A stretch of 64,000 bases of DNA from NCBI RefSeq assembly GCF_015767245.1, contig NZ_JADOTV010000003.1, forward strand, positions 124,001-188,000. The letters are read 5' to 3'. Under the pieces are notes generated by a model. That model saw only the letters and a program-made list of their open reading frames with translations. It ran no database searches and was not told the origin of the DNA. The stretch is from Aureivirga sp. CE67. Its GTDB lineage: Bacteria > Bacteroidota > Bacteroidia > Flavobacteriales > Flavobacteriaceae. Below are positions 10,490 through 24,032 of the stretch, in pieces. The position numbers and the translations under genes were made by a program. Positions within the stretch are counted from its first letter, which is position 1. Every line of letters begins with the position of its first letter.

Positions 10490-11810
10490 TTTTTTCTGTG
10501 ATTGTTATTAAACTAATTCCATATAAAAATCCTGGAAATGCAAGTCTCATTGCAGAGTGATTAATCGTCATAAACCAAAATATTAAAAATGCACTTAAAA
10601 AAGCTTTATAAAGTAAAGGTTGTTTTAAAATATGAAATGCTGGAACAATTATTAATAATACTAAAATAATAATTCCAATAATTCCATGTTCTCCTAAAAG
10701 TCGACTAACTTCATTATGTGCAGTTGCAACAATTTTTTCACCACTTCCGATTCTTACATATTTTCCACTTCCTACTCCTATCCCAAATATTGGGTTTTCA
10801 TATAGACTTTGTAAATCATTTTCAAAAATATGACCTCTTCCTGAGGTAATATCTTCTTTTACATTTCCTTTAAAACCTCTATTCGTATATCTATTGAAAA
10901 GTTGTCCTTTTGTTGCAATAATTCCATATGTCCATAAACTTATAACACCAACAATAGTTATAAGTGAATATTTTAAAAAATTTCTAGTTTTATTTTTAGA
11001 TGCTAAAAAATAGAAAAATAAAAAAGACAATAGCATTGCTACACCTGTTAGTACTCCACCTCTTGAAAAAGTCATCATTCCACGAAATGCCATATAACCA
11101 AATAAAAGTAAATCTAGAAGTAAATATCCTGTAAATCGCTTTTTAAGAATTAAGTAAACTCCTATTACAAAAAAACCTACACCTAATGTAGTAGAAACTT
11201 GATTTGGTCCAAATCCACCTGAAGCATCAAAATTTGAAGCTCCTCCAAATTTAATATCACTTAATGCTGGTGTTTTAAAAAATAAGTAACTAACAACAGC
11301 AACCATTGGTAAACCTAGGAAAAATATAAATTGTAAAATTGTTTTCTTGGAAAGTTTTCTTTGATAACAATATAATGCAGAAAAACACAAAGAAATAGGA
11401 CCACTTAAATTAAACATAACTGCTTTACGAATAGATTCTGGATATGGGACTTTTGTAAAAGCAATTCCTACCAAAAACAATAAAGTAACATAAATGTAAA
11501 CTGGAAAAAGAATATGTTTTCTTTTTTCTACAATCATACCAAAAGTTAAAAGAATAATCACCAAATATTTCGTCAACTCCCAAGATAAAACACTATTTGT
11601 CATTCTAAAAAACACCTCAGCACCAACAAAATAACTTGTCCAAATTAATGCTTCGTTATTCTTATTTTTTGTTCTATAAATCGCTATAATAGCGATTAAA
11701 ATTAAACTTGCAGTAAAAAGTTTACCTAAAAACCCAATAGGAAATATAAATCCAAGCAATAAATGTGCAAGGATAAACAATATTTTTTTATTTTGGAAAA
11801 AACTCAACAT
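10461..11810 (-). CDS. O-antigen ligase/polymerase-like membrane protein (WaaL/Wzy superfamily)
   Basis: 449 residues with about 11-12 predicted membrane helices. A large periplasmic loop contains the superfamily pattern: GRGHIFENDL, then PIFGIGVGSGKY, then TAHNEVSRLLGEHG. This His-Asn plus Glu-His-Gly pattern is shared by WaaL ligases and Wzy polymerases. Because the same operon encodes a Wzm/Wzt exporter and no Wzx flippase was seen, a ligase attaching the finished chain to an acceptor is the more economical reading, but polymerase is possible. It overlaps both neighbours. Confidence 0.85.
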   Translation of the reverse strand: MLSFFQNKKILFILAHLLLGFIFPIGFLGKLFTASLILIAIIAIYRTKNKNNEALIWTSYFVGAEVFFRMTNSVLSWELTKYLVIILLTFGMIVEKRKHILFPVYIYVTLLFLVGIAFTKVPYPESIRKAVMFNLSGPISLCFSALYCYQRKLSKKTILQFIFFLGLPMVAVVSYLFFKTPALSDIKFGGASNFDASGGFGPNQVSTTLGVGFFVIGVYLILKKRFTGYLLLDLLLFGYMAFRGMMTFSRGGVLTGVAMLLSFLFFYFLASKNKTRNFLKYSLITIVGVISLWTYGIIATKGQLFNRYTNRGFKGNVKEDITSGRGHIFENDLQSLYENPIFGIGVGSGKYVRIGSGEKIVATAHNEVSRLLGEHGIIGIIILVLLIIVPAFHILKQPLLYKAFLSAFLIFWFMTINHSAMRLAFPGFLYGISLITITEKNEEDPLLWE

Positions 11811-12886
11811 GAATAATAAATTTCTTGTATCTGTTTAAGAATTACTCTTTTGGAATAATTTTCTTTTAAATATTCCGAAAGTAAATCTGCTTTTTGAAGA
11901 GATTCTTCTTTATTTTCTAATGTTTTAATAATTGCATTCCCTAAAGCTTCTGCATTTTTTATAGGAACTAATTCACCATATTTTCCATTTTCTAAAACAG
12001 TTGAACATTGTCCAACATCTGTAACAACTATTGGTAAATTTGACATTCCATATTCCAATAAAGAGACTGGTAAACCTTCTGAATCTGAAGAAAGTACTCC
12101 AACAGAACTTTGTTTTAAAATATTTGAAACATCTGAGCAAGCTCCATAAAAATGAACTTTATCAGAAATTTTATAAAGCTCGACCAAATCATAAACAGAT
12201 TTTGTATATTCAGATTGATATAATTTCCCTACTAAATGAAGCGTTGCTTCTGGAATTTTTGATTGAACTTTCTTAAAAGCTTGGACCAAATTTAAATGAT
12301 TTTTCTCTGAACGAAATCCTGCAACACAAACAATTCTAAAATCTTTATGCCCTTTTAAAGTTGTTCTTTTTAAATCACTATTTAAATTTGAAAAATTCTG
12401 AATAAAATAAGAATTTTTGAATTTCAATTTTTGTTTGACCCATTCATTCAGTTCAAAACTTACATTAATTACTTTACTTGTGAAGAATAATTGACTTTTC
12501 AGGAAAATTTTTCTTTTTAAATCCGAATTTGTATTTGCACCTGTATGATTGTGCCAAACGATTTTAATTGGCGAATAAAGTAACTTTACTAAACAAGAAA
12601 AAAATAGAGAAGTTGTATGTACATGAATAATTTTAATGTCATTTTTCTTTAAAAATTGAATCAATAATTGAACAGCCGAAAAATCAAAAGTCTTCTTCTT
12701 ATTCAAGAATAAATATTCTACTTCTGGCAACAGATTCTTCTTTAAATCTCCTTCTTCTCTTGTGCTACATAAAAAAGTTTTCTGATTTGATTGTGTTAAG
12801 CTATTTGCAATATTAACCGCCATCATTTCAGCTCCTCCAACATTCAAAGAATCAATTAATTGTATTACTTTTCTTTCTTCTTGCAT
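11804..12886 (-). CDS. Glycosyltransferase, GT4/GT-B type
   Basis: 360 residues of GT-B fold. The start KVIQLIDSLNVGGAEMMAVN is the classic N-terminus of GT4 enzymes. The donor half has VCVAGFRSEKNHLNLVQAF and the EX7E region SEGLPVSLLEYGMSNLPIV (about 271-289). A TAnnTTTG-like box lies 15 bases upstream (12901-12908), so an internal promoter may boost this part of the operon. It overlaps the ligase-like gene by seven bases. Confidence 0.92.
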   Translation of the reverse strand: MQEERKVIQLIDSLNVGGAEMMAVNIANSLTQSNQKTFLCSTREEGDLKKNLLPEVEYLFLNKKKTFDFSAVQLLIQFLKKNDIKIIHVHTTSLFFSCLVKLLYSPIKIVWHNHTGANTNSDLKRKIFLKSQLFFTSKVINVSFELNEWVKQKLKFKNSYFIQNFSNLNSDLKRTTLKGHKDFRIVCVAGFRSEKNHLNLVQAFKKVQSKIPEATLHLVGKLYQSEYTKSVYDLVELYKISDKVHFYGACSDVSNILKQSSVGVLSSDSEGLPVSLLEYGMSNLPIVVTDVGQCSTVLENGKYGELVPIKNAEALGNAIIKTLENKEESLQKADLLSEYLKENYSKRVILKQIQEIYYSC

Positions 12887-12900
12887 TTCTAAAATTTCGT

Positions 12901-12908
12901 CAAAAATA
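12901..12908 (-). promoter_or_regulatory. Candidate internal -7 promoter box
   Basis: TATTTTTG on the minus strand lies in the 29-base gap before the GT4 gene that starts at 12886. No -33 element was recognised. It may let the last three genes be transcribed separately from the main operon. Confidence 0.25.
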
Positions 12909-12915
12909 GTTTAAA

Positions 12916-14028
12916 TTATAATATTTTACTGATTTCTGTTTCAAATTTTTCTAAAGTATAATTTTGTGACCAATTTGCCCCATTTTCAGAATGTTCTGTA
13001 TATTTATTTTTATTAGAAAAATAGGATGAAACTGTTTCAACAATAGATTCTAATGAATCCGAAACGATACTTCCTCTAGAGCCATTTCCTAACATAAAAG
13101 GAACACAAGAAACTTTCGTTGTAATTGGAACACATTTCCAAAACATAGCTTCCGCAACTACTTTTGGCCAACCTTCAGATTTAGAAATGAAAATTAAAAA
13201 ATGTGACTTTTGAAAAGCTTTTTTTACAGTTTCACTTGACACATTTCCATGTAAAACGATTTTTTCTTGTAAATTATTTTCTAAAATATAATTTTCCAAT
13301 TTTTTTCGTTCTACTCCTTCTCCATACATATTTAAAACTACATCATGTCCTTTTTTCAAAAGCTCATGTGCTGCTTTCACACTTAAAATCGGCTGTTTTC
13401 CAGTACTTAATGCTCCAACAAACATTAAATCAACGGTTTCGTTTAATGTTTTTGAATTAATTTCTTCAATTTCAGATTTATGATAAGTTGCAGTAAAAAA
13501 TGGTAAAATATTTTTTGTTTGATTTTCCCATTCACCATAAACCAAAACTTTCATATTTTTTGTCAAAAACGTATTTGATAAAATCCATTTTTGAATCTTA
13601 TAAGTAAATGGTTGTTTTGATTCTGGATCCCAATTTCCGGCATATTTTGCTGTTTTTGGTTTGGAAGGAAATAAAATTTGCACAAAACAACCTAATAAAC
13701 CAATATTTCCTGGACAACGTAAATGAATATGATCTGCCCATTTCATCGATTTATAAATTTGAATTAAAATAGATGGAATTACAAATAGTGATTTTACTAA
13801 ATTTTTTAAAGAAGTTATATTAAATTCTTTAATCTTAATAAACTCTAATCTTTCATGACGATATGCCAATTCATTTGAATGGATTTCATCAGTTGAAATT
13901 GGAGCAACTACTTGTAATTCCTTCGTATATTTTTCCCAAATTTGCATTTCTCTCACATAAGGAGCATAGGAAAACCATTCATTTTCCTTTTTTTTATGAA
14001 CTGCGTGTGTGATGATTGTAAATTTCAC
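12916..14028 (-). CDS. Glycosyltransferase, GT4-like
   Basis: 370 residues, GT-B fold. The N-terminal half (KFTIITHAVHKKKENEWFSY) is less typical. The C-terminal half has MFVGALSTGKQPILSVKAA and the signature SEGWPKVVAEAMFWKCVPI (about 283-301), with the two glutamates of the EX7E motif. It is translated directly after the HAD phosphatase (one-base overlap ATG/stop). It likely adds one residue of the repeat; specificity unknown. Confidence 0.87.
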   Translation of the reverse strand: MKFTIITHAVHKKKENEWFSYAPYVREMQIWEKYTKELQVVAPISTDEIHSNELAYRHERLEFIKIKEFNITSLKNLVKSLFVIPSILIQIYKSMKWADHIHLRCPGNIGLLGCFVQILFPSKPKTAKYAGNWDPESKQPFTYKIQKWILSNTFLTKNMKVLVYGEWENQTKNILPFFTATYHKSEIEEINSKTLNETVDLMFVGALSTGKQPILSVKAAHELLKKGHDVVLNMYGEGVERKKLENYILENNLQEKIVLHGNVSSETVKKAFQKSHFLIFISKSEGWPKVVAEAMFWKCVPITTKVSCVPFMLGNGSRGSIVSDSLESIVETVSSYFSNKNKYTEHSENGANWSQNYTLEKFETEISKIL

Positions 14029-14645
14029 TATTCAAATGAATTAATATAATTCCCTAACTCTTCCAAGTTTTTATTATTATACCCGTAGAAAGAAATTTCA
14101 TTAGCAGTTGCCGCTTCATAATCATTAATGGAATCTCCAATTAAAGCAAAATACGAATTTTCAATATCTGTATTTGCTTTTAAAATTGTTACTACATTTT
14201 CTATTTTAGCAATTGGTGATCCATATATTTTTTCAAAATAACGATTAATATTTAATGATTCACAAATATGATTTAATTCTTTTTGATCAGAACCAGAAGC
14301 AATATACATTGTAATTTTTTCGTGATTATTTTTAATAAAATCAACAACTTCTTTATTTAATAATTCTTCTTTTATTAAATTTTGAAGCATTACTTCTGAA
14401 AATCTTTTTGCCCAATTATTTACTTCTTCTTCTGTAATACTTTCATTTCTGATTTCTTCAAAAAAATATCGAAATTTCACATATCTTGATAATCCACCAT
14501 TTGCTTGATGAAAATCTAAAAGAGCATCAACTTGATCTTTTGGAAAATCTTTTAAAACATCCACAAAACCATTATCTCTTACTTCATTTGAGAACATGAT
14601 AACACCATCAAAATCCCAAATTATTATTTTTTTATTCTTAATCAT
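14028..14645 (-). CDS. HAD-family phosphatase
   Basis: 205 residues. Motif I is WDFDGV with the nucleophile Asp11 and acid/base Asp13. A helical cap follows, then motif II IASGSD (about 115-120), a lysine in PIAKIEN (motif III) and motif IV IGDSINDYEAA. This is a phosphoglycolate-phosphatase-like (subclass I) HAD. The gene overlaps the KdsB-like CMP-sugar synthetase by eight bases and follows the aldolase, so I infer it removes phosphate from the aldol product before CMP activation, the role KdsC has for Kdo. It is not itself KdsC-like in having a cap domain. Confidence 0.85.
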   Translation of the reverse strand: MIKNKKIIIWDFDGVIMFSNEVRDNGFVDVLKDFPKDQVDALLDFHQANGGLSRYVKFRYFFEEIRNESITEEEVNNWAKRFSEVMLQNLIKEELLNKEVVDFIKNNHEKITMYIASGSDQKELNHICESLNINRYFEKIYGSPIAKIENVVTILKANTDIENSYFALIGDSINDYEAATANEISFYGYNNKNLEELGNYINSFE

Positions 14646-15363
14646 TTTTTAGAATTTTTATTACTTTTTCAAGATCTTCAGGATAATCCACAGGAACAGA
14701 ATCTTTAGATAATTCCACCATTCGAATATCATATCCTAACTCTAGAAAACGTAAAATTTCAATATCTTCAATATTTTCAAAAAGCGTTTTCCCATTTGTT
14801 TGTGTAAAATTTTCTAAAGCTTGTTTAGGAAAAGCATAAATACAAACTTGACGAAAACCTTTTACAAATTCCTTTGTTTTATTAAAAGGAATAGGAGCTC
14901 TAGACATATAAAGTAAACGCTTATCTTCTCTAAAAACTACTTTAGGTAAACCAACACTTAGAAAGTCTTCTTCATTATCGATTTCACAATAACCATTAAT
15001 AATTTCTCCATCATGTTCACTGATTAAATCATATACTTTTTTAATGTCTTGTGAATTAATCACTGGTTCATCTCCTTGTACATTAATATAATAATCCGCT
15101 TCAACAACTTTTGCAAATTCAGCAATTCTATCAGTTCCTGTCAAACAATCTTCACTTGTTAACACAACATTAAAACCTAAAGATTCACAATGTTCTGAAA
15201 TTTCTGTTGCATCTGTTGCGACATAAACTAGTTCTTTTGGAATTACCTCTAAACATTTTTCATAGACTCTTTGAATCATCGACTTTCCTAAAATATCAAT
15301 CAACGGTTTTTTAGGAAATCTTGTAGATTTTAAACGAGCCGGAATTACAACTACAGTTTTCAT
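14638..15363 (-). CDS. CMP-ulosonic acid synthetase, KdsB/KpsU-like
   Basis: 241 residues, the usual length of 3-deoxy-manno-octulosonate cytidylyltransferase. Motifs: VVIPARLKSTRFPKKPL (nucleotide-binding loop, residues 5-21), LTGTDRIAEF (74-83) and NVQGDEP (94-100). The family couples CTP to the anomeric hydroxyl of a 3-deoxy-ulosonic acid. Its place between an aldolase and a phosphatase, and the KpsU-like sequence, point to a glycan-specific enzyme rather than the housekeeping Kdo one. A second, NeuA-type synthetase lies in the same operon. The substrate is probably Kdo or an analogue. Confidence 0.85.
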   Translation of the reverse strand: MKTVVVIPARLKSTRFPKKPLIDILGKSMIQRVYEKCLEVIPKELVYVATDATEISEHCESLGFNVVLTSEDCLTGTDRIAEFAKVVEADYYINVQGDEPVINSQDIKKVYDLISEHDGEIINGYCEIDNEEDFLSVGLPKVVFREDKRLLYMSRAPIPFNKTKEFVKGFRQVCIYAFPKQALENFTQTNGKTLFENIEDIEILRFLELGYDIRMVELSKDSVPVDYPEDLEKVIKILKND

Positions 15364-15366
15364 TAA

Positions 15367-16887
15367 TTACAATAATTTATACACAGAATTTGTTGGAATT
15401 GAATTATACAATGTTGGTGTGATTGCATTATACGTAATTCCTTTTTTAGAAAAATCTTTAAATAATTTAATATTTTCTTCAAATAATTCTTGATCCTTTT
15501 GTACAATTTTTCCGTCAGCATAACCATCAAAACCTGTAAATAAAACCTCATCAACTTCTAATTCAATAGATAATTGCATTGCAATTGCCAAATGAGAGTC
15601 TTTCACAATTTTTGTGAATTCAATTTGCTCTAGTTCATAGGTTACATCTGAAATTTTTTCAGGCACATATGTTCCCATCACTCTTGGAGTTGGTGGTAAA
15701 ATACATTGACCATTAAAATTATCTAAAGGTTTAAATACTTTTTTAATACGTAAACCTTCGTTTCCAACTAAGCAAAAATATTGATCAGCAGAAGTATTTG
15801 AATAAACATTTGCATTTTTAGAAGATGCATGAATTACACAAATATCTTTTTCTGCTTCTAGAAGTTCTAAAATTGCACTACTATGATTAATTGCTGTTTT
15901 TCCTCCTCCAATAATTAATGCTTTTTTATATTCTTTTTTTGGCGTAAAAGTTTTATATGTATTCGAAGAAGCATCTTCGTTTAAAGCTCTTACAACACTA
16001 TTTAAAGAATAGAATTTCTTAGAAACCCATTCCATAACATTTTTCTGCGGTAAAGAACGAATTCCAGAAACCATATATGGTAATGAAGTTCCCCAATTAT
16101 ACTCTTCTTTTAAATTACTAAAAGCACTTGTTACTTCACTTAATGCATCAAAATCAACAGGAATTTTTTGTGTTTTATTTAAAACCGAAAGTAATAATTC
16201 TGTCTTTAAGTTTCCAGCTCCTCTTCCCATTCCTGTGATAGTAGAATCTATCAAAGTTGCTCCAGCTTCCATTGCTGTTAAAGAATTAATTAAAGCTAAT
16301 TCTATATTATTATGCCCATGAAAACCAACTTCAACATCTGTTTTAGATTTAACATATTGGATTTTTTCTCTTACAAAATCAGGAAAAACACTTCCAAAAG
16401 AATCTACTAAATAAAAATAATCAACCTGTCCAGAAAGTTGTGGTAAAACCAAATCAATTTCTTCATACTTATCCCATTCAGATAAATACATAACATTAAA
16501 AGCAACTTTTAAATCGTATTTTTTAATTTCTTTTGCTAAATCTAACGCATCAAAAACATTTTCAGGTTTAACTGCAATTCTTACTAAATCAATATATTGA
16601 ATACATGAAGAAAGAAGATAATCTAAGTCCTTTTTCTCTACACTTTTTTGATCAATTAAAATTGCAATTTCTTTATCTGTATTTTCTTTTATTTTTGCTA
16701 AAGTATTAATTGGCGTATAAAAATATTCTCCTTGATATCCTTCATGTATAATATTTCTATAACCAACTTCAATAATATCAATTGGTAATTTATTTATCGA
16801 TTCAAAATATATTTTCTGAATATTTTCATTAAAGTCCCAGTTAGTATAATAACCTCCATCTCTAAATGTACAATCTAATATTTTCAT
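15367..16887 (-). CDS. DRE-TIM aldolase fused to a DUF115-like C-terminal domain
   Basis: 506 residues in two parts. Residues 1 to about 300 form a 4-hydroxy-2-oxovalerate-aldolase/HMG-CoA-lyase-like TIM barrel: CTFRDGGY (catalytic Arg9, metal ligand Asp10), metal-binding HGH at 190-192 and GMGRGAGN (219-226). Residues about 322-506 form a second Rossmann-like domain with ALIIGGGKTAINHSS, VMGTYVP and VLFTGFDGYADG, resembling DUF115/GT42-type proteins such as the next gene. The barrel could condense pyruvate with a sugar aldehyde to a 4-hydroxy-2-oxo acid. It overlaps the preceding gene by four bases and lies three bases before the CMP-sugar synthetase. The exact reaction is unknown. Confidence 0.78.
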   Translation of the reverse strand: MKILDCTFRDGGYYTNWDFNENIQKIYFESINKLPIDIIEVGYRNIIHEGYQGEYFYTPINTLAKIKENTDKEIAILIDQKSVEKKDLDYLLSSCIQYIDLVRIAVKPENVFDALDLAKEIKKYDLKVAFNVMYLSEWDKYEEIDLVLPQLSGQVDYFYLVDSFGSVFPDFVREKIQYVKSKTDVEVGFHGHNNIELALINSLTAMEAGATLIDSTITGMGRGAGNLKTELLLSVLNKTQKIPVDFDALSEVTSAFSNLKEEYNWGTSLPYMVSGIRSLPQKNVMEWVSKKFYSLNSVVRALNEDASSNTYKTFTPKKEYKKALIIGGGKTAINHSSAILELLEAEKDICVIHASSKNANVYSNTSADQYFCLVGNEGLRIKKVFKPLDNFNGQCILPPTPRVMGTYVPEKISDVTYELEQIEFTKIVKDSHLAIAMQLSIELEVDEVLFTGFDGYADGKIVQKDQELFEENIKLFKDFSKKGITYNAITPTLYNSIPTNSVYKLL

Positions 16888-17669
16888 TTATTTGTGTTAT
16901 TTATGAAATAAGAAAAATTATTTATATAAGAAAGTTCTTGTTGACAAGCTTCTATAAACTTTTTCATTTTATTTTTATTTTCATCTCGCATTGCAACATG
17001 TCGTGGTAAAGTTTTAGAACCATCGAAATATTGCTTTCCTCCTTCTCCTGCATCTAAACCGTAAATATTAAAATTTTGAAGATTATCAAACTTAGAGGTC
17101 AACCAAATTCCATAACCATACAACATCAATCCACTATTAGAATCTGGATTTGGAGTTTCAATATTTTTAGAAACAAAATCAAGTCTTTCACTATAATAAT
17201 TGACTTTATTTAGTTCTACTAAATTTTCATTATTTGTAATTACAATTGGAAAAGGAAATTTTCTTCTTTGTAAATATTTTTTAATATAATTTATTGTCAT
17301 CGCTCCAAAACCATTTCCACCAGAATGTGTTGGAATTTCTATAATAACAAGTTTCGGATTGTATTTTAAACCAAAAAGTAAAAATTTTCTTAGATAACCT
17401 AAGTCTTTAATCACATGAACAAAATCATATTTTCCTTCTAAATATAAATAAGAAGAATTAGTTGTTAAATATAAAGTTTCGCTATTTGGTTTACATAAAT
17501 TTAAAGAAGGTCCAGAAGCAAACATCGTGATTTCTTTATATTTTCCAATAAAATCTTTTAAATCTAAAAAAGATAATTTCTTTGAATTCCCTAAAAAATT
17601 ATAGAACATTAATAATTTCGAAAAATGCGGATATTTATTCGTGTATTTTATTTTGTCAGAAACGTTCAT
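16884..17669 (-). CDS. DUF115/GT42-like protein, possible sialyl- or ulosonyltransferase
   Basis: 261 residues. ITMFASGPSLNL (about 47-58) resembles the nucleotide-binding GPSL motif of bacterial CstII-type (GT42) sialyltransferases and DUF115 proteins, and SGLMLYGYGIW followed by NIYGLDAGEGG (about 178-218) matches their second conserved block. By analogy it would bind a CMP-sugar and transfer an acidic sugar to the glycan. It lies between a GT4 gene and the aldolase fusion, whose C-terminal half looks similar. The family call rests on short motifs only, and the classic GT42 catalytic histidine is not certain here. Confidence 0.55.
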   Translation of the reverse strand: MNVSDKIKYTNKYPHFSKLLMFYNFLGNSKKLSFLDLKDFIGKYKEITMFASGPSLNLCKPNSETLYLTTNSSYLYLEGKYDFVHVIKDLGYLRKFLLFGLKYNPKLVIIEIPTHSGGNGFGAMTINYIKKYLQRRKFPFPIVITNNENLVELNKVNYYSERLDFVSKNIETPNPDSNSGLMLYGYGIWLTSKFDNLQNFNIYGLDAGEGGKQYFDGSKTLPRHVAMRDENKNKMKKFIEACQQELSYINNFSYFINNTNK

Positions 17670-18827: not shown

Positions 18828-20213
18828 CTATTTATTTAAAATTACATTAACCAAATTATCACAAGCATTGTTTTTTTCATTCACAATACAATCAAACCAC
18901 TTTTTATTCGAAAGCTTTTCTTTAGAATGTAAAGCTTTTTCTACAACAGTTTTAATTTCAGATTTATCATTTAGCCAATGAACTGAATTCTTATCAGGCA
19001 TACTTCTAAAATGTTGAAATTTATAAATTGTATCCACAGACCAATCACTTTCTTTTTCTATATCATAATTAATATAAATTGCAGGTTTATTATGAATTGA
19101 AAAATCGTGCGCCATTGTAGACCCAACATTCACTACTGTATCACAATGCTTTACAACATTCATCAATTCTATAATATCTGAATATTTCGGATACACTAAA
19201 TCCCACCCTATTTTAGTTCCTTCTAATGCCCATTCTGGATTTCCAACTTTTATAATGTGCTTATAATCTTCTAAAACCTTATCGAATCTATCAGAAAGAT
19301 CTACAGGACATCTTCTAAAAAGAATTTGAGGTTGAGATTCTTTAGGAAAGTTTTCTATTTCTTTTGCTAAATGTTCTAAATAAATAGGATCAAATGGAGA
19401 AGTCTTTTTATCATCTCCTGAATAGCAAATTACTTTTCGATTTACATCTAAATTATGCTTTGTAAAAAACGCTTCTTTAGAACTATATAATTCTTCTTTA
19501 TTATAAAACTCAAACTGTGGTGTTCCTGTAATTGTTACTTTATCTAAAGATATTTCTGGATAATATGTTTTCATTTCTTCTTTCATTAAAGAAGACCAAA
19601 CAACATATTCATCTGTTCTCACAGAAAGTCTAGCTTTTGGCATATTATCCCAAGAAAAAATTGCTCCAACTGTTCGAATTCCCATTCTTTTTGCTTCTGT
19701 CATAATCGGAATCGCTTGAATCGCTCTTTGATGTGTACAAAAAACAACATCAACCTCATTTTTCTTTAAATATTCATTATAAACTTGTGGAATCTCTCTT
19801 ATAACCAGTTTTTCATAATAAGATTCTAATTTTACAATATCTTGATAATTCTTAGAAATTTTCTTTCCATATAATTCAATTAAACCAAAAAGATATTTTT
19901 TGACACCTTGCTTTCTTGGCTTCCAATTATTAAGAATCGTTTCGTTTTTTTGTAATTTCGAATTATAAAGTAATCTTGAATAAGAAATTAATTCTCGAAT
20001 AAAAACCTGCGATTTTGTTTCTCTAAACAAAGGCATTCTTTCAAAAATAATCTTTTCATCTGAATATACTTTTTTGATTTCTTCTATGGCAGAATTTGAT
20101 AAAGTATGCCAAATGAATATTTCAGAATTATTTTCGATTAGTTTTTTTAATAAATCTGAATATAAATAATTTCTTATCCCAACTCCATCAGGAATTACTA
20201 TACAAACTTTCAT
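18828..20213 (-). CDS. GT-B-fold transferase, CDP-glycerol glycerophosphotransferase-like
   Basis: 461 residues. The N-terminus KVCIVIPDGVGIRNYLYSDL, the middle IPIMTEAKRMGIRTVGAIF and GTPQFEFYNKEELY, and the C-terminal NVGSTMAHDFSIHNKPAIYI (about 379-398) give the layout of UDP-GlcNAc-2-epimerase/CDP-glycerol-transferase-type GT-B proteins found in polysaccharide loci. It may transfer a sugar or a polyol phosphate. I cannot assign a donor. It shares a TAATG stop/start overlap with the dehydrogenase gene, implying coupled translation. Confidence 0.65.
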   Translation of the reverse strand: MKVCIVIPDGVGIRNYLYSDLLKKLIENNSEIFIWHTLSNSAIEEIKKVYSDEKIIFERMPLFRETKSQVFIRELISYSRLLYNSKLQKNETILNNWKPRKQGVKKYLFGLIELYGKKISKNYQDIVKLESYYEKLVIREIPQVYNEYLKKNEVDVVFCTHQRAIQAIPIMTEAKRMGIRTVGAIFSWDNMPKARLSVRTDEYVVWSSLMKEEMKTYYPEISLDKVTITGTPQFEFYNKEELYSSKEAFFTKHNLDVNRKVICYSGDDKKTSPFDPIYLEHLAKEIENFPKESQPQILFRRCPVDLSDRFDKVLEDYKHIIKVGNPEWALEGTKIGWDLVYPKYSDIIELMNVVKHCDTVVNVGSTMAHDFSIHNKPAIYINYDIEKESDWSVDTIYKFQHFRSMPDKNSVHWLNDKSEIKTVVEKALHSKEKLSNKKWFDCIVNEKNNACDNLVNVILNK

Positions 20214-21151
20214 TAACTTAGAAATTTTAAAAATTTTTCTAATATAAACTCCTCTGTTTTCTCAATGGATTCATGCGTATTTCCGCCAATATGAGGAGTT
20301 AATATGATATTTTTATGCTTTTTAGCATATTGAAAAATAGGATTTGTTGTTATTTCTGGCTCTCCAAATAAAACATCTGAAGCATAACCAGAAACAATAT
20401 TATTTTGCATCGAGTTTACCAAATCTTCTTCCAGGATTAATCCTCCTCTCGAAGTATTTACGATTAACATTCCTTTTTTCATGGTTTCAAAATAGGAAGT
20501 ATCTATAATTTCATGATTTTCTTCATTATAAGGTAAATGAATCGATAAAACATCTACTTCTTGTAACATTTCTTTTACAGTATCACACTTTTTAAAATGT
20601 TTTGAAGTTTGCTTTTCTTTTGTATCAAAATAAAAAACTTGCATTCCAAAAGCATGTGCATAACCTGCTACAATTTCTCCTAATCTTCCTAAACCAAGAA
20701 TTCCTATTTTCTTTTTATATAATTCTGAACCTTGAAAAAGTGTTCTGTCCCAAATTCCATTTTCTACATGTGTAATTGCTTTATCTGTTTTTCGAATTAA
20801 AGTCAAAAGTAATCCCCAAGTATGTTCAGCTGTTGCTCTTACTTCTTTTAAAAATTCAAATTCATTTTTCAAACTAATCACAGTAATTCCAAATTCTTCA
20901 CAAGCTTTTAAATCTATATGATCTAAACCTGTTACAGCACATAAAATATATTTACATCTTGCTGTTTTTAAAATTTCTCTTGTAAGTTTATGATTTAAGC
21001 GAAACCAAAAAACATCACAATTTTGTAATGCTTCTTTTACATCTTTATCTGATTCTAATATGACGTATTCTATTGAAGAAACTTGTGTTAATCTATTTTC
21101 AACATTTCTATCAAGCTGCTCAATTCCAGAGATTTTTGTAATTAAATTCAT
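20213..21151 (-). CDS. D-2-hydroxyacid dehydrogenase in the sugar operon
   Basis: 312 residues of the D-isomer-specific 2-hydroxyacid dehydrogenase family. The NAD-binding motif is GILGLGRLGEIVAGYA (about 148-163). The catalytic Arg lies in VNTSRGGLILEE and the His in LTPHIGGNTHES, with a Glu between them. It interconverts a 2-oxo acid and a D-2-hydroxy acid. It lies one base after neuA and overlaps the next transferase by one base, so it belongs to the glycan pathway, perhaps making a hydroxyacid substituent or acting on a sugar acid. It is a paralogue of the serA product at 27971-28924. Confidence 0.88.
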   Translation of the reverse strand: MNLITKISGIEQLDRNVENRLTQVSSIEYVILESDKDVKEALQNCDVFWFRLNHKLTREILKTARCKYILCAVTGLDHIDLKACEEFGITVISLKNEFEFLKEVRATAEHTWGLLLTLIRKTDKAITHVENGIWDRTLFQGSELYKKKIGILGLGRLGEIVAGYAHAFGMQVFYFDTKEKQTSKHFKKCDTVKEMLQEVDVLSIHLPYNEENHEIIDTSYFETMKKGMLIVNTSRGGLILEEDLVNSMQNNIVSGYASDVLFGEPEITTNPIFQYAKKHKNIILTPHIGGNTHESIEKTEEFILEKFLKFLS

Positions 21152-21152
21152 A

Positions 21153-21845
21153 TTATAACTCTCCTTTTTTCCAAAGTTTAATTAAAGCTTCTGTTATAAT
21201 TAAATCTCTTTCTGTATCAACATTTGCCCATTTTGATTCAGGCATTATATATGCTTTTTTATTAGCAGTAATTACTTTTCCTTCTTTTTTGAAAATATCT
21301 GTTCTTACAGCATAAATACTTCCATTTCGAAGGTAAACTTTTGGTAACTCTTGTCTTCTTTTCTTTTCTAATTCTGGATTTAAAGAAATCATTTCTGCTT
21401 TTTCACCAAGTCTATACATTCTTGCAGGATGAATATCATCTAATTCAATCACAGAAACCACACTTTCAATTGTTTGATTTTCAGAAAACACTTTTATTAC
21501 ATTATCAATATCTTCTGTTTCACGAATCGGAGCAGTTGGTTGTAATAAAATAATAATATCATAATTTTCATCTAATTTCGATAAAACTTCATCAATTACT
21601 CCTTCTATCTTGGCAGTATCTGTAGCATTTTCCTTAGTACGTAATTGTACTTCACAACCTGCTTTTTCAGAAACTTCTTTAATTTCTAAATCATCTGTTG
21701 TAACAAGAAGTTTTGAAATTTTAGAACTTTTTAAAGCTGTATCAATTGTATAATGAATCAAAGGTTTTCCATCAACTTCTCTGATATTTTTTCTTAAAAC
21801 ACCTTTAGATCCTCCTCTTGCTGGTATAATTCCTAAAACTTTCAT
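21153..21845 (-). CDS. neuA: CMP-sialic acid synthetase (acylneuraminate cytidylyltransferase)
   Basis: 230 residues, close to the short NeuA class. The N-terminal nucleotide-binding motif is GIIPARGGSKGVLRKNI (5-21), then LLVTTDDLEI, LLQPTAPIRETEDID (about 103-117), YLRNGSIYAVR and a final NVDTERDL with metal-binding aspartates. It couples CTP with the sugar made by NeuB. It follows neuC directly (adjacent stop and start). Related enzymes use legionaminic or pseudaminic acids, but no genes specific to those pathways are present here. Confidence 0.92.
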   Translation of the reverse strand: MKVLGIIPARGGSKGVLRKNIREVDGKPLIHYTIDTALKSSKISKLLVTTDDLEIKEVSEKAGCEVQLRTKENATDTAKIEGVIDEVLSKLDENYDIIILLQPTAPIRETEDIDNVIKVFSENQTIESVVSVIELDDIHPARMYRLGEKAEMISLNPELEKKRRQELPKVYLRNGSIYAVRTDIFKKEGKVITANKKAYIMPESKWANVDTERDLIITEALIKLWKKGEL

Positions 21846-23000
21846 CTAATAAGTAATTGTTTTATGAAAATGTAAATCTGTTGTTGCTAAAACTTCTGCA
21901 ATTCGTTCTCCTGAAAGTCCATCACCATAAATAGGATTGGATGGATATTCTTTAATTGTTGCTTGTTTTGAAATTGCTTCTTTAATTTCTTCTACATCAT
22001 AATTAACATCTAAAACATTTTCTCCTCGTTGTCTTCTATTTTGTCTAGAACCAATATTCACTACAGGAACACCAAGAAAAGCACATTCGCGAATTCCTGC
22101 GCTTGAATTTCCAATCAAACAATTACTATTTTTTAATAAACGTAAGAAATCATGTGGTTCCATATTCTTAAAGAATCGAATATTTTTAGGTTTTACAGTT
22201 TCTCTAAAACTTCTAATTGCTCCTGAAGTTCCATCAGAACCCGCATCTACATTTGGCCAAAACCAAAACGTTGGAATTCCTAATTGTTCAACAGCTTCCA
22301 AAGTTTTGAAAGCATCTTCTCTTGCTTTATCAAATTCGGTAGTTACAGGATGTTGTAAAACAACAATGTATCCAGATTTCCAATCAAAATCTTCTCCTAC
22401 TCCTCCATATTTTTCAATTGGATCATAATCTAGCGTTGGATTATCCATGATTTCTTTAACCAAATCCATCGAGGGACAACCTGTATTAATCACCATATCC
22501 TCATTTTCACCCATTTTCACCACTCTTTCCCTAGCATCATCAGAAGCTACAAGATGTAAATCCGCCAATTTTGTATTTGCATGACGAACTTTTTCATCAA
22601 TATTTCCAGTAACTTCTCCTCCTTGAATATGAATTAGAGGAATATTTTGATATGCTGTCGCAATAGAAGTTGCAATTGTTTCAAATCTGTCTGCAATTGT
22701 CACAACAGCATCAGGTTTTAAGTTATAAAACACATTAGAAAGTTCCATAACGCCTATTCCTGTTGTTTTTGCCATTGCTGTCGGATTTTCACCTTCTAAA
22801 ACCATGAAAACTTTTTCTGTGATTTCAAATCCATCAGCCTGAATCACATCTACAGCGTTTCCATATCTACCTAATAAAGCAGAACCAGCAACAACTAATT
22901 GTAATTCTAAATTTGGATGATTTTTAATTGCAACTAATGCAGATTTAATTCTACTATACGAAGGTCTTGCAGTTACTACAACACATATTTTTTTCTTCAT
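21846..23000 (-). CDS. neuC: UDP-N-acetylglucosamine 2-epimerase (hydrolysing)
   Basis: 384 residues, the length usual for NeuC/NnaA. Landmarks are VVVTARPSYSRIKSAL at the N-terminus, HIQGGEVTGNIDEKVRHA (about 122-139), VLQHPVTTEFDKARED and the UDP-binding GNSSAGIRECAFLGVPVVNIG (two adjoining motifs, about 297-317). It converts UDP-GlcNAc to ManNAc plus UDP, the first step to N-acetylneuraminate. Placed between neuB (33-base gap) and neuA, it completes a three-enzyme sialic acid module. Confidence 0.93.
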   Translation of the reverse strand: MKKKICVVVTARPSYSRIKSALVAIKNHPNLELQLVVAGSALLGRYGNAVDVIQADGFEITEKVFMVLEGENPTAMAKTTGIGVMELSNVFYNLKPDAVVTIADRFETIATSIATAYQNIPLIHIQGGEVTGNIDEKVRHANTKLADLHLVASDDARERVVKMGENEDMVINTGCPSMDLVKEIMDNPTLDYDPIEKYGGVGEDFDWKSGYIVVLQHPVTTEFDKAREDAFKTLEAVEQLGIPTFWFWPNVDAGSDGTSGAIRSFRETVKPKNIRFFKNMEPHDFLRLLKNSNCLIGNSSAGIRECAFLGVPVVNIGSRQNRRQRGENVLDVNYDVEEIKEAISKQATIKEYPSNPIYGDGLSGERIAEVLATTDLHFHKTITY

Positions 23001-23033
23001 ATTCTTTCTATCAATATTTATTTAAACAGAATT

Positions 23034-24032
23034 TTAAACTAAATCTTCATAATTCAGAAAATCCCATTTTTGCATATCATGTTTTATTTCTTTACCAATA
23101 ATTTCTTCATATTTCGAAGCTTCAATTCCGAAACCTTTTGGTTTTTTAGTTTCTAAATCTTCAAAAGAAATCACATGACCTGCTGGTAAGTTTTTATTTA
23201 TTGCTAAAGATTTCTCAAAAATAGATTTTAATTCCGAGAATCTACTATTATCTGCTTTATTTATTGGATTATTTTTGGCAATTTCAATATTTCTAATCGC
23301 ATCTACCATTTGTTTTGTTTCTTCCATTGTTAAAGAAGATTTTGCATCTGGTCCAAACATTTCTCTATGAAAAACTACATGAAACTCTAATATTTCAGCT
23401 CCTATAGCACAAGCTGCAATTCCTGTTTCAATTTTTGCAGAATGATCTGAAAATCCAACAGGCACATTATATCGTTTCTTTAATTCTAAAATAACATTAA
23501 AACCAAAATCTTTCGGATTTGTTGGATAAGAAGTTGTACACTGTAAAATTGAAAAATCTACATTTCTTTTTTCTAAAAAAGCAATTGTTTGATCTAACTC
23601 CTCAAAAGAACTCATTCCAGAAGAAATAATTACAGGTTTTCCTGTTCTTGCTATTTTTTCTAATAACACAAAATTATTTACTTCACCTGAACCTACTTTA
23701 TATCTCTCAACACCAACTTCTTCTAATAAATCAACAGCAGTATTACTAAAAGGAGAACTCATAAATTCCAATCCAACCTGATCACAATGTTGTTTAATAC
23801 CTTTCCATTGTTCCAAAGAAAACTCCATCCTTTTCCAATATTCATAGCGAGTATCATCTTGTTTCGAAAACTTCACTCGAAAAGGTTCATGAATACTACT
23901 TTCAGCTTCTGCAATATGTGTTTGAAATTTTATTGCATCAACTCCTGTTTTTGCCAAAGCATCAATATAAGAATGTAATAATCCTAAACTTCCATCATGT
24001 GCTTGTGCAATTTCTGCTATAATTTGTGTCAT
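23034..24032 (-). CDS. neuB: N-acetylneuraminate synthase
   Basis: 332 residues. The TIM-barrel NeuB domain (about 1-245) has IIAEIAQAHDGSLGL, DAIKFQTH, SSPFSNTAVDLLEE, KVGSGEVNNF, VIISSGMSSFEEL and VGFSDHSAKIETGIAA. A C-terminal SAF/antifreeze-like lid follows (about 268-330: GHVISFEDLETKKPKGFG). It condenses ManNAc with phosphoenolpyruvate to a nonulosonic acid. With neuC alongside, the product is most likely Neu5Ac. It starts four bases after the acetyltransferase gene. Confidence 0.94.
   Translation of the reverse strand: MTQIIAEIAQAHDGSLGLLHSYIDALAKTGVDAIKFQTHIAEAESSIHEPFRVKFSKQDDTRYEYWKRMEFSLEQWKGIKQHCDQVGLEFMSSPFSNTAVDLLEEVGVERYKVGSGEVNNFVLLEKIARTGKPVIISSGMSSFEELDQTIAFLEKRNVDFSILQCTTSYPTNPKDFGFNVILELKKRYNVPVGFSDHSAKIETGIAACAIGAEILEFHVVFHREMFGPDAKSSLTMEETKQMVDAIRNIEIAKNNPINKADNSRFSELKSIFEKSLAINKNLPAGHVISFEDLETKKPKGFGIEASKYEEIIGKEIKHDMQKWDFLNYEDLV

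What the first reader, a model, noticed from the sequence alone, without database searches (positions are those of the whole stretch)
14028..17669. Candidate alternative CMP-ulosonic acid pathway: aldolase fusion, HAD phosphatase, KdsB-like synthetase, GT42-like transferase
Seen: four overlapping or abutting genes encode a DUF115/GT42-like protein, a DRE-TIM aldolase fusion, a KdsB/KpsU-like CMP-sugar synthetase and a HAD phosphatase. Known: classical Kdo synthesis uses a PEP-dependent KdsA, phosphatase KdsC and KdsB. Inference: the metal-dependent barrel replaces KdsA, making a 3-deoxy-2-oxo sugar acid from pyruvate and a phosphorylated aldehyde, which is then dephosphorylated, CMP-activated and transferred. 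I know of no characterised pathway with this set.
Basis: partly seen in the sequence, partly recalled or inferred. Interest (0 to 1): 0.78.

Follow-up and report, generated by a model that had tools for sequence, protein, structure and literature searches.

The report
Aldolase-based CMP-ulosonic acid gene cassette
A small group of neighbouring genes, found in very different bacteria, appears to make an activated acidic surface sugar by joining pyruvate to a sugar aldehyde instead of using the standard enzyme for such sugars, which would be a new route to a well-known class of cell-surface building blocks.

Summary
The four genes are real and abut on the minus strand. Three form a recurrent cassette: an HMGL/DmpG-type aldolase fused to a C-terminal sialyltransferase/MptE-like domain, a CTP:sugar cytidylyltransferase and a HAD phosphatase. 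The fourth (16884-17669) is a rare accessory gene. Of 73 distinct fusion loci with three or more downstream genes, 63 have a cytidylyltransferase and 43 such a HAD within three genes downstream; more than five genes away the rates are 10 and 0 of 534. KdsA occurs in 1 of 90 neighbourhoods, 9.5 kb off. Three genomes 98-99% complete carry the cassette without any KdsA/DAHP-synthase-I or NeuB family match; all five of their over-cut-off cytidylyltransferases sit in aldolase cassettes, though only one of these lacks a second, HpcH-type aldolase. Five clusters without the fusion combine an HpcH aldolase with the same HAD and cytidylyltransferase families. Most cassette KdsB-like enzymes form their own clade with changed residues in the sugar-binding domain. 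Best reading: a pyruvate-aldolase route to a CMP-activated 3-deoxy-2-ulosonic acid other than Kdo. Chemistry and product are inferred. Ten literature searches gave no description of it.

The parts
15976..16887 (-). Aldolase barrel, residues 1-304 of the fusion protein
   Evidence: HMGL-like E 1.7e-21; model nearest 3dxi_A, VIA Z 46.5, 299 residues, rmsd 1.0, then DmpG-type aldolases Z 30.6-31.4; R9, D10, S163, H190, H192 identical in 53 of 53 relatives
15367..15933 (-). C-terminal domain of the fusion (residues 319-506), sialyltransferase/MptE-like
   Evidence: No family match in the window protein; relatives match PF01973 MptE-like up to E 9.8e-7, under the gathering score; profile ranks alpha-2,3/8-sialyltransferases first in the PDB, E 0.002-0.005
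14638..15363 (-). KdsB-like CTP:sugar cytidylyltransferase with the Gln/Cys signature
   Evidence: CTP_transf_3 E 5.8e-41; NF009905 294 bits; in a separate clade of 29 cassette enzymes, support 99/93
14028..14645 (-). HAD-family phosphatase of the cassette
   Evidence: HAD_2 E 6e-12; relatives at E <= 1e-20 in all 9 fusion genomes of the 395-genome sample
16884..17669 (-). Accessory 261-aa gene, possible transferase; family unproven
   Evidence: No family match; 2 of 395 class genomes; same position in Psychroflexus planctonicus L032, 48% identity
17678..20213 (-). Two upstream genes (381 and 461 aa) syntenic with L032; accessory, not core
   Evidence: In L032 a 461-family gene and a 382-aa gene precede the 261-aa relative and the fusion in the same order

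Best explanation
The three-gene cassette is a KdsA- and NeuB-independent route to a CMP-activated 3-deoxy-2-ulosonic acid for a surface polysaccharide. Inferred steps: (1) the metal-bound barrel forms the pyruvate enolate and adds it to a phosphorylated aldehyde (triose- to hexose-phosphate), giving a 4-hydroxy-2-oxo acid phosphate, that is, a 3-deoxy-2-ulosonic acid phosphate; (2) the HAD enzyme removes the phosphate; (3) the KdsB-like (elsewhere NeuA-like) enzyme couples the anomeric hydroxyl to CMP; (4) a sialyltransferase-type enzyme transfers the sugar: the fused C-terminal domain, a separate GT29, GT52 or MptE-like protein in other clusters, or here perhaps the 261-aa gene. Since most loci hold no recurrent aldehyde-making gene, the aldehyde is probably a common sugar phosphate. 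Shown: gene content, conservation, co-occurrence, genomes without KdsA and NeuB families, conserved metal-site motifs, the HpcH form. Inferred: all substrates, step order and product.
For: Co-occurrence: 63 of 73 (cytidylyltransferase) and 43 of 73 (HAD) within three genes downstream, against 10 and 0 of 534 background genes. Reverse search: HAD relatives at E <= 1e-50 are 11 places in 395 genomes, 9 of them in fusion cassettes; the two KdsB-like relatives above 41% identity both lie beside a fusion. G054, G112 and G123 (98-99% complete) have no PF00793 and no NeuB match, and their five over-cut-off CTP_transf_3 genes are all in aldolase cassettes. Five clusters without the fusion have HpcH/HpaI + cytidylyltransferase + HAD (HpcH checked by Pfam in four). 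DmpG-like fold and conserved R, D, S, H, H. GT29 after the HAD in 6 of 73 loci, a family described as moving ulosonic acids from CMP donors (PMC13171606 passage).
Against: No activity data. The DmpG catalytic His is Tyr in 53 of 53. 24 of 76 loci have a cytidylyltransferase within four genes but no such HAD, and 7 have no cytidylyltransferase within four genes. 10 of 73 loci carry an HpcH aldolase as well, including three of the four fusion cassettes in G054 and G112, so in those the fusion need not be the synthase; only G123's cassette is free of it. 49 of 50 genomes of named loci have PF00793 matches. Two close HAD relatives (G119, G368) have no cytidylyltransferase or aldolase nearby.
Confidence: 0.68

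Rival explanations
1. In some or all clusters the fusion is not the ulosonate synthase: HpcH, where present, does that step, and the fusion acts later or on another precursor, for instance as a transferase whose barrel serves another aldol step.
For: HpcH + HAD + cytidylyltransferase clusters exist without the fusion; HpcH sits beside the fusion in 10 of 73 loci; the C-terminal domain looks like a transferase.
Against: 63 of 73 fusion loci have no HpcH nearby, among them G123, which lacks KdsA and NeuB families; metal-site motifs are identical in 53 of 53, HpcH-bearing loci included.
Confidence: 0.12
2. The barrel does Claisen or aldol chemistry on a non-sugar substrate (as citramalate or 4-hydroxy-2-oxovalerate enzymes do) and makes a small acid that decorates the glycan; the CMP-sugar comes from elsewhere.
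For: The HMGL family includes such enzymes; the usual DmpG base is replaced.
Against: Persistent pairing with CMP-sugar synthetase and HAD; the sequence is nearer to DmpG aldolases than to the Claisen synthases; a different pyruvate-aldolase family can take its place.
Confidence: 0.1
3. The KdsB-like enzyme is a second CMP-Kdo synthetase fed by the housekeeping KdsA, as KpsU is in E. coli, and the aldolase is unrelated.
For: NF009905 scores above its cut-off; the genome has KdsA and 49 of 50 other cassette genomes have PF00793 matches.
Against: G054, G112, G123 and G203 have no PF00793 match; equivalog cut-offs are missed (TIGR00466 152.2 against 155.2; PRK05450.1-1 164.6 against 281); changed His and Gly; half the cassettes use a NeuA-like enzyme.
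Confidence: 0.08
4. The cytidylyltransferase activates a phosphonate, and the HMGL domain is a phosphonomethylmalate-synthase-like enzyme.
For: Nucleotidyl activation is common in phosphonate clusters (PMC6697681: abstract start, passages); HMGL-type enzymes occur in some phosphonate pathways (recalled).
Against: No good PEP mutase: in 9 cassette genomes PF13714 gives no match in 3, matches under the cut-off in 3, and partial over-cut-off matches away from the cassette in 3.
Confidence: 0.02

Closest known systems
Kdo pathway (KdsA, KdsC, KdsB)
   Same: Ulosonate phosphate synthase, phosphatase, CMP synthetase; the synthetase is KdsB-like here
   Different: No KdsA in the cassette; DmpG-like pyruvate aldolase instead; HAD_2-type phosphatase; Gln/Cys for His/Gly in the cytidylyltransferase
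Kdn / Neu5Ac-9-phosphate pathways with a HAD phosphatase (recalled)
   Same: Synthase, HAD phosphatase and CMP synthetase in sequence
   Different: Those synthases are PEP-dependent NeuB relatives; here no NeuB in the cassette
DmpG-type 4-hydroxy-2-oxovalerate aldolases
   Same: Barrel fold and metal-site motifs
   Different: Catabolic, paired with an aldehyde dehydrogenase (titles); catalytic His is Tyr here; other C-terminal part
3dxi, N-terminal domain of BVU_2661, Bacteroides vulgatus
   Same: Same barrel family, 50% identity over 299 residues
   Different: Uncharacterised; only the N-terminal domain was solved; no paper names BVU_2661 in the library searched
Preparative sialic acid aldolase + CMP-sialate synthetase cascades
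   Same: Pyruvate aldolase product passed to a CMP synthetase (PMC7729866 passage)
   Different: Laboratory cascade with a different aldolase, not a natural cassette

Membership tests
HMGL-like / DRE-TIM metallolyases | HMGL-like profile and barrel fold | tested here: met
   PF00682 77 bits, cut-off 29; 53 of 53 relatives match; fold
HMGL-like / DRE-TIM metallolyases | Metal-site Asp and HxH, and the preceding Arg (roles recalled) | tested here: met
   R9, D10, H190, H192 in 53 of 53, aligned with 4jn6
4-hydroxy-2-oxovalerate aldolase (DmpG) | TIGR03217 equivalog cut-off | tested here: not met
   82.3 bits, cut-off 286
4-hydroxy-2-oxovalerate aldolase (DmpG) | Catalytic His three residues after the metal Asp (role recalled) | tested here: not met
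   Tyr13 in 53 of 53; His in 4jn6
Pyruvate-dependent ulosonate synthase | Aldol activity with pyruvate and a sugar aldehyde | not testable with these tools
   Needs enzymology
Kdo pathway | KdsA with the cassette | tested here: not met
   1 of 90 neighbourhoods, 9.5 kb away at a locus edge; the positive controls (4 KdsA genes from other genomes) were found at 46-80% identity
KdsB, CMP-Kdo synthetase | Family profiles | tested here: inconclusive
   NF009905 subfamily met (294 against 255); TIGR00466 equivalog narrowly missed (152.2 against 155.2)
KdsB, CMP-Kdo synthetase | His and Gly of the H-x-G-I-Y motif in the Kdo-binding domain | tested here: not met
   Gln and Cys in the window protein; His/Gly in 5 of 5 housekeeping KdsB and in the 5 PDB sequences printed
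GT42 / MptE-like (DUF115), C-terminal domain of the fusion | Family profile over its cut-off | tested here: inconclusive
   PF01973 29.1 bits against 34.6 for L080, none for the window protein; CstII-type chains E 0.002-0.005 by profile
GT42 / DUF115, gene 16884-17669 | Family profile or fold | tested here: inconclusive
   No family match; model pLDDT 47.7; relative L105 PF01973 E 0.0044

The most novel reading that the evidence does not exclude
The fusion is a bifunctional enzyme that both builds an undescribed ulosonic acid (through its pyruvate-aldolase barrel) and, after CMP activation by its neighbour, transfers it to the glycan (through its GT42-like domain). It would stand for a widespread, PEP-independent class of ulosonic acid biosynthesis that has recruited at least two unrelated aldolase families (HMGL and HpcH), from Bacteroidota to Pelagibacter and Prochlorococcus.
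Probability: 0.28. Interest if true: 0.85.

Novelty: new variant of a known kind. Interest (0 to 1): 0.7.

Why it matters
To my knowledge the characterised natural routes to CMP-activated ulosonic acids (Kdo, Kdn, sialic, legionaminic and pseudaminic acids) start with a PEP-dependent synthase of the KdsA or NeuB type. A cassette with a pyruvate aldolase in that place would be a separate solution to the same problem, would mean that genes now labelled as Kdo cytidylyltransferase are misnamed, and would predict new acidic sugars on the surfaces of environmental and gut bacteria. It can be tested with three purified proteins, and the carrier genomes without KdsA and NeuB families are clean places to look for the sugar.

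Tried and rejected
Rejected: KdsA regularly next to the block. My first search, on called genes, found none (no positive control); a tblastn of the DNA with four positive controls found one cut-off KdsA at the edge of L073, so the count is 1 of 90. Phosphonate pathway. Plain KpsU-like duplication. 'Cassette hosts in general lack KdsA': not so, 49 of 50 genomes of named loci have PF00793 matches; the absence argument rests on four of eight other fusion genomes in the sample, three of which also lack NeuB.

Led nowhere: the structure of 16884-17669 (two sequences, pLDDT 47.7), so no fold search was made with it. The Foldseek and VIA lists for the fusion were filled by the barrel, so the C-terminal domain was hardly tested; that is no evidence of a new fold. 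Profile comparisons: C-terminal domain with the GT29 group 43.7% probability, with the 261-aa gene 3.2%, 261-aa gene with GT29 0.1%. Plasmid tblastn: 87 records, 3 covering 80% of the query. Profile of the 261-aa pair against the PDB: no match.

Literature: ten searches, in a library without most subscription journals, listed no paper that I recognised as describing the cassette. Seen: passages of PMC10433991, PMC13171606, PMC6697681, PMC12409901 and PMC7729866; outline, passages and section 7 part 1 of PMC3149649. All others only as search listings.

The 80 named loci are the best-scoring of 560, chosen by likeness to the fusion and not by neighbours. GT29 was checked by Pfam in 1 of 6 loci, PfkB in 1 of 3; the rest are by my own profiles.
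Full report
WHAT IS THERE. On the minus strand four genes abut or overlap: 16884-17669 (261 aa), 15367-16887 (506 aa), 14638-15363 (241 aa) and 14028-14645 (205 aa), spaced -4, +3 and -8 bases. A family-1-type glycosyltransferase (PF00534) follows at 12916-14028, and a separate NeuA-NeuC-NeuB set lies at 21153-24032, so this is a surface-polysaccharide region. The genome is 4.8 Mb, 99.95% complete.

THE FUSION. Residues 2-248 match HMGL-like (PF00682, E 1.7e-21). The model is confident (53 sequences, mean pLDDT 92.9). Its barrel is nearest to 3dxi_A, 'N-terminal domain of a putative aldolase (BVU_2661)' (VIA Z 46.5, 299 residues, rmsd 1.0), then to the DmpG-type aldolases 4jn6, 1nvm, 4lrt, 4lrs and 8ih7 (Z 30.6-31.4, rmsd 3.2-4.2), ahead of homocitrate and isopropylmalate synthases (Z 27.1 and below). 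R9, D10, S163, H190 and H192 align with the same residues of 4jn6 and are identical in 53 of 53 relatives; their roles (enolate-binding Arg, pyruvate-site Ser, metal ligands) are recalled from DmpG. The position of the DmpG catalytic His is Tyr in 53 of 53, so this is not a standard DmpG. The C-terminal domain (319-506) has no family match in the window protein. Relatives match MptE-like PF01973 (E 9.8e-7 for L080, 1.5e-6 for L088, both under the gathering score; 10 of 53 full-length members at E <= 0.01), and a 20-sequence profile of divergent members ranks alpha-2,3/8-sialyltransferases (family GT42, recalled) first in the PDB at E 0.002-0.005. I read it as a sialyltransferase/MptE-type domain; this is not proven.

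CONSERVATION. In a sample of 395 genomes of the phylum 9 carry the fusion (10 copies), all open, the nine others being 44-55% identical to the window's. The 80 best named relatives come from Bacteroidota, Alpha-, Gamma- and Deltaproteobacteria, Pelagibacteraceae, Prochlorococcus, Omnitrophica, Opitutales, Chloroflexi and Firmicutes, many of them metagenome bins that may be misbinned. Of 90 neighbourhoods 81 gave an aldolase gene and 78 of these have both domains. Without two duplicates 76 remain, 73 with at least three downstream genes. In the 73, a cytidylyltransferase is the next gene in 50, within three genes downstream in 63 and within four genes on either side in 68; a HAD lies within three genes downstream in 43. 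More than five genes from the fusion, cytidylyltransferases are 10 of 534 genes and these HADs 0 of 534. NeuB lies within four genes in 3 of 73. Of all 76, 24 have a cytidylyltransferase but no such HAD within four genes and 7 have no cytidylyltransferase within four genes; some of the former are gut Bacteroidales, and a PfkB-type kinase follows in L036 and L038.

KDSA. A first search of the called genes found no KdsA. A tblastn of the DNA of all 90 neighbourhoods, with four KdsA genes of other genomes as positive controls (all found, 46-80% identity), found one: a cut-off KdsA at the edge of L073, about 9.5 kb from the fusion. In G320 a PF00793 gene of KdsA type lies about 20 kb from the fusion. 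So KdsA is not a regular neighbour.

GENOMES WITHOUT THE CLASSICAL SYNTHASES. Of the eight other fusion genomes, four (G054, G112, G123, G203) have no PF00793 match and three of these (G054, G112, G123; 98-99% complete, G112 in one contig) also have no NeuB match. Their over-cut-off CTP_transf_3 genes number 2, 2 and 1, and all five lie in aldolase cassettes: four beside a fusion, one (G054:C6) beside an HpcH aldolase without fusion. If they act on ulosonic acids, neither known PEP-dependent family is there to make them. Limits: three of the four fusion cassettes (both in G112, one in G054) also hold an HpcH aldolase, so only G123 points to the fusion alone; and 49 of 50 genomes of named loci do have PF00793 matches. 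The window's genome has its own KdsA and housekeeping KdsB. The cassette usually comes on top of the Kdo pathway.

REVERSE SEARCHES in 395 genomes of the phylum. Relatives of the window's KdsB-like enzyme (E <= 1e-40, 21 places) are itself, two at 61-62% identity (G123, G005, both next to a fusion) and 18 at 41% or less. HAD relatives (E <= 1e-20) occur in 17 genomes, all 9 fusion genomes among them; the 11 places with E <= 1e-50 are 9 cassette places and 2 others, G119 and G368. I fetched the 9 HAD places outside fusion cassettes. Seven have a cytidylyltransferase in the stretch; five of these (G019, G054:C6, G256, G213, G317) also have an HpcH/HpaI aldolase and no fusion (HpcH confirmed by Pfam in four of the five); G119 and G368 have neither. 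HpcH/HpaI is a different family whose known aldolases use pyruvate (recalled). Two unrelated pyruvate-aldolase families combined with the same HAD and cytidylyltransferase families is to me the strongest argument that the missing step is an aldol addition of pyruvate. Why 10 of 73 fusion loci hold both aldolases I cannot explain.

THE CYTIDYLYLTRANSFERASE. Among 70 cassettes it is KdsB-like in 36 and NeuA-like in 34; ten NeuA-like ones scanned score 37-76 bits against PseF, cut-off 206. Of the 36, 29 form one branch (support 99/93) apart from five housekeeping KdsB and from seven others. These 29 have Gln for the His of the housekeeping 'KHIGIYAF' motif, and 28 of them Cys for its Gly (L090 has Leu). 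The five PDB KdsB sequences printed have His and Gly. The motif lies in the C-terminal part, the domain that binds Kdo in KdsB (PMC3149649, passage), while the two Mg-binding Asp named there are kept in the alignment. This suggests a sugar other than Kdo; whether these two residues touch the sugar was not checked.

TRANSFER. A GT29-type protein follows the HAD in 6 of 73 loci (PF00777 E 1.3e-9 for L025; the others by alignment and profile). A GT52 protein follows the cytidylyltransferase in L061, and a free-standing MptE-like protein (82 bits) lies in the HpcH cluster L162. [quoted passage not shown] In the window the candidates are the fused C-terminal domain and the 261-aa gene, which is rare (2 of 395 class genomes) but keeps its place in Psychroflexus planctonicus (L032), where the fusion is followed by an HpcH gene and a NeuA-type enzyme instead.

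CONCLUSION. Shown: a recurrent three-gene cassette across many phyla, not tied to KdsA or NeuB, with conserved metal-site motifs. Inferred: pyruvate plus an aldehyde phosphate gives an ulosonate phosphate, which is dephosphorylated, activated as a CMP-sugar and transferred. It works like the Kdo and Kdn pathways but is not filed as the Kdo pathway, because KdsA adjacency and the KdsB sugar-domain motif were not met. Ten literature searches in a library lacking most subscription journals listed no description of it.

Noticed in passing
window 20213-24032: A second CMP-nonulosonic acid set in the same region: NeuB-, NeuC- and PseF/NeuA-like genes plus a D-2-hydroxyacid dehydrogenase.
   Followed up: no
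L157, L158, L159, L160, L162: HpcH/HpaI aldolase + cytidylyltransferase + HAD clusters without the HMGL fusion; L158 and L162 also hold a GlcN6P-isomerase-family gene and an NAD epimerase, which may hint at a hexose-phosphate aldehyde.
   Followed up: partly
L036, L038, L093: A PfkB-type kinase close to the cassette where no cassette-type HAD was found.
   Followed up: no
L074, L077, L078, L079, L100: Deltaproteobacterial and other loci with fusion, a second HAD family, HpcH and a divergent KdsB-like enzyme; L074 also has an LdpA-like Fe-S protein.
   Followed up: partly
L089 and L092, about 11685-13276: A B12-binding radical SAM protein (Pfam in L089) directly after the fusion in Pelagibacteraceae loci.
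   Followed up: no
window 18828-20213: 461-aa protein without a Pfam or NCBIfam family, with a relative in L032 in the same gene order.
   Followed up: no
L154 (G119) and L155 (G368): Close relatives of the cassette HAD in stretches without cytidylyltransferase or aldolase.
   Followed up: partly
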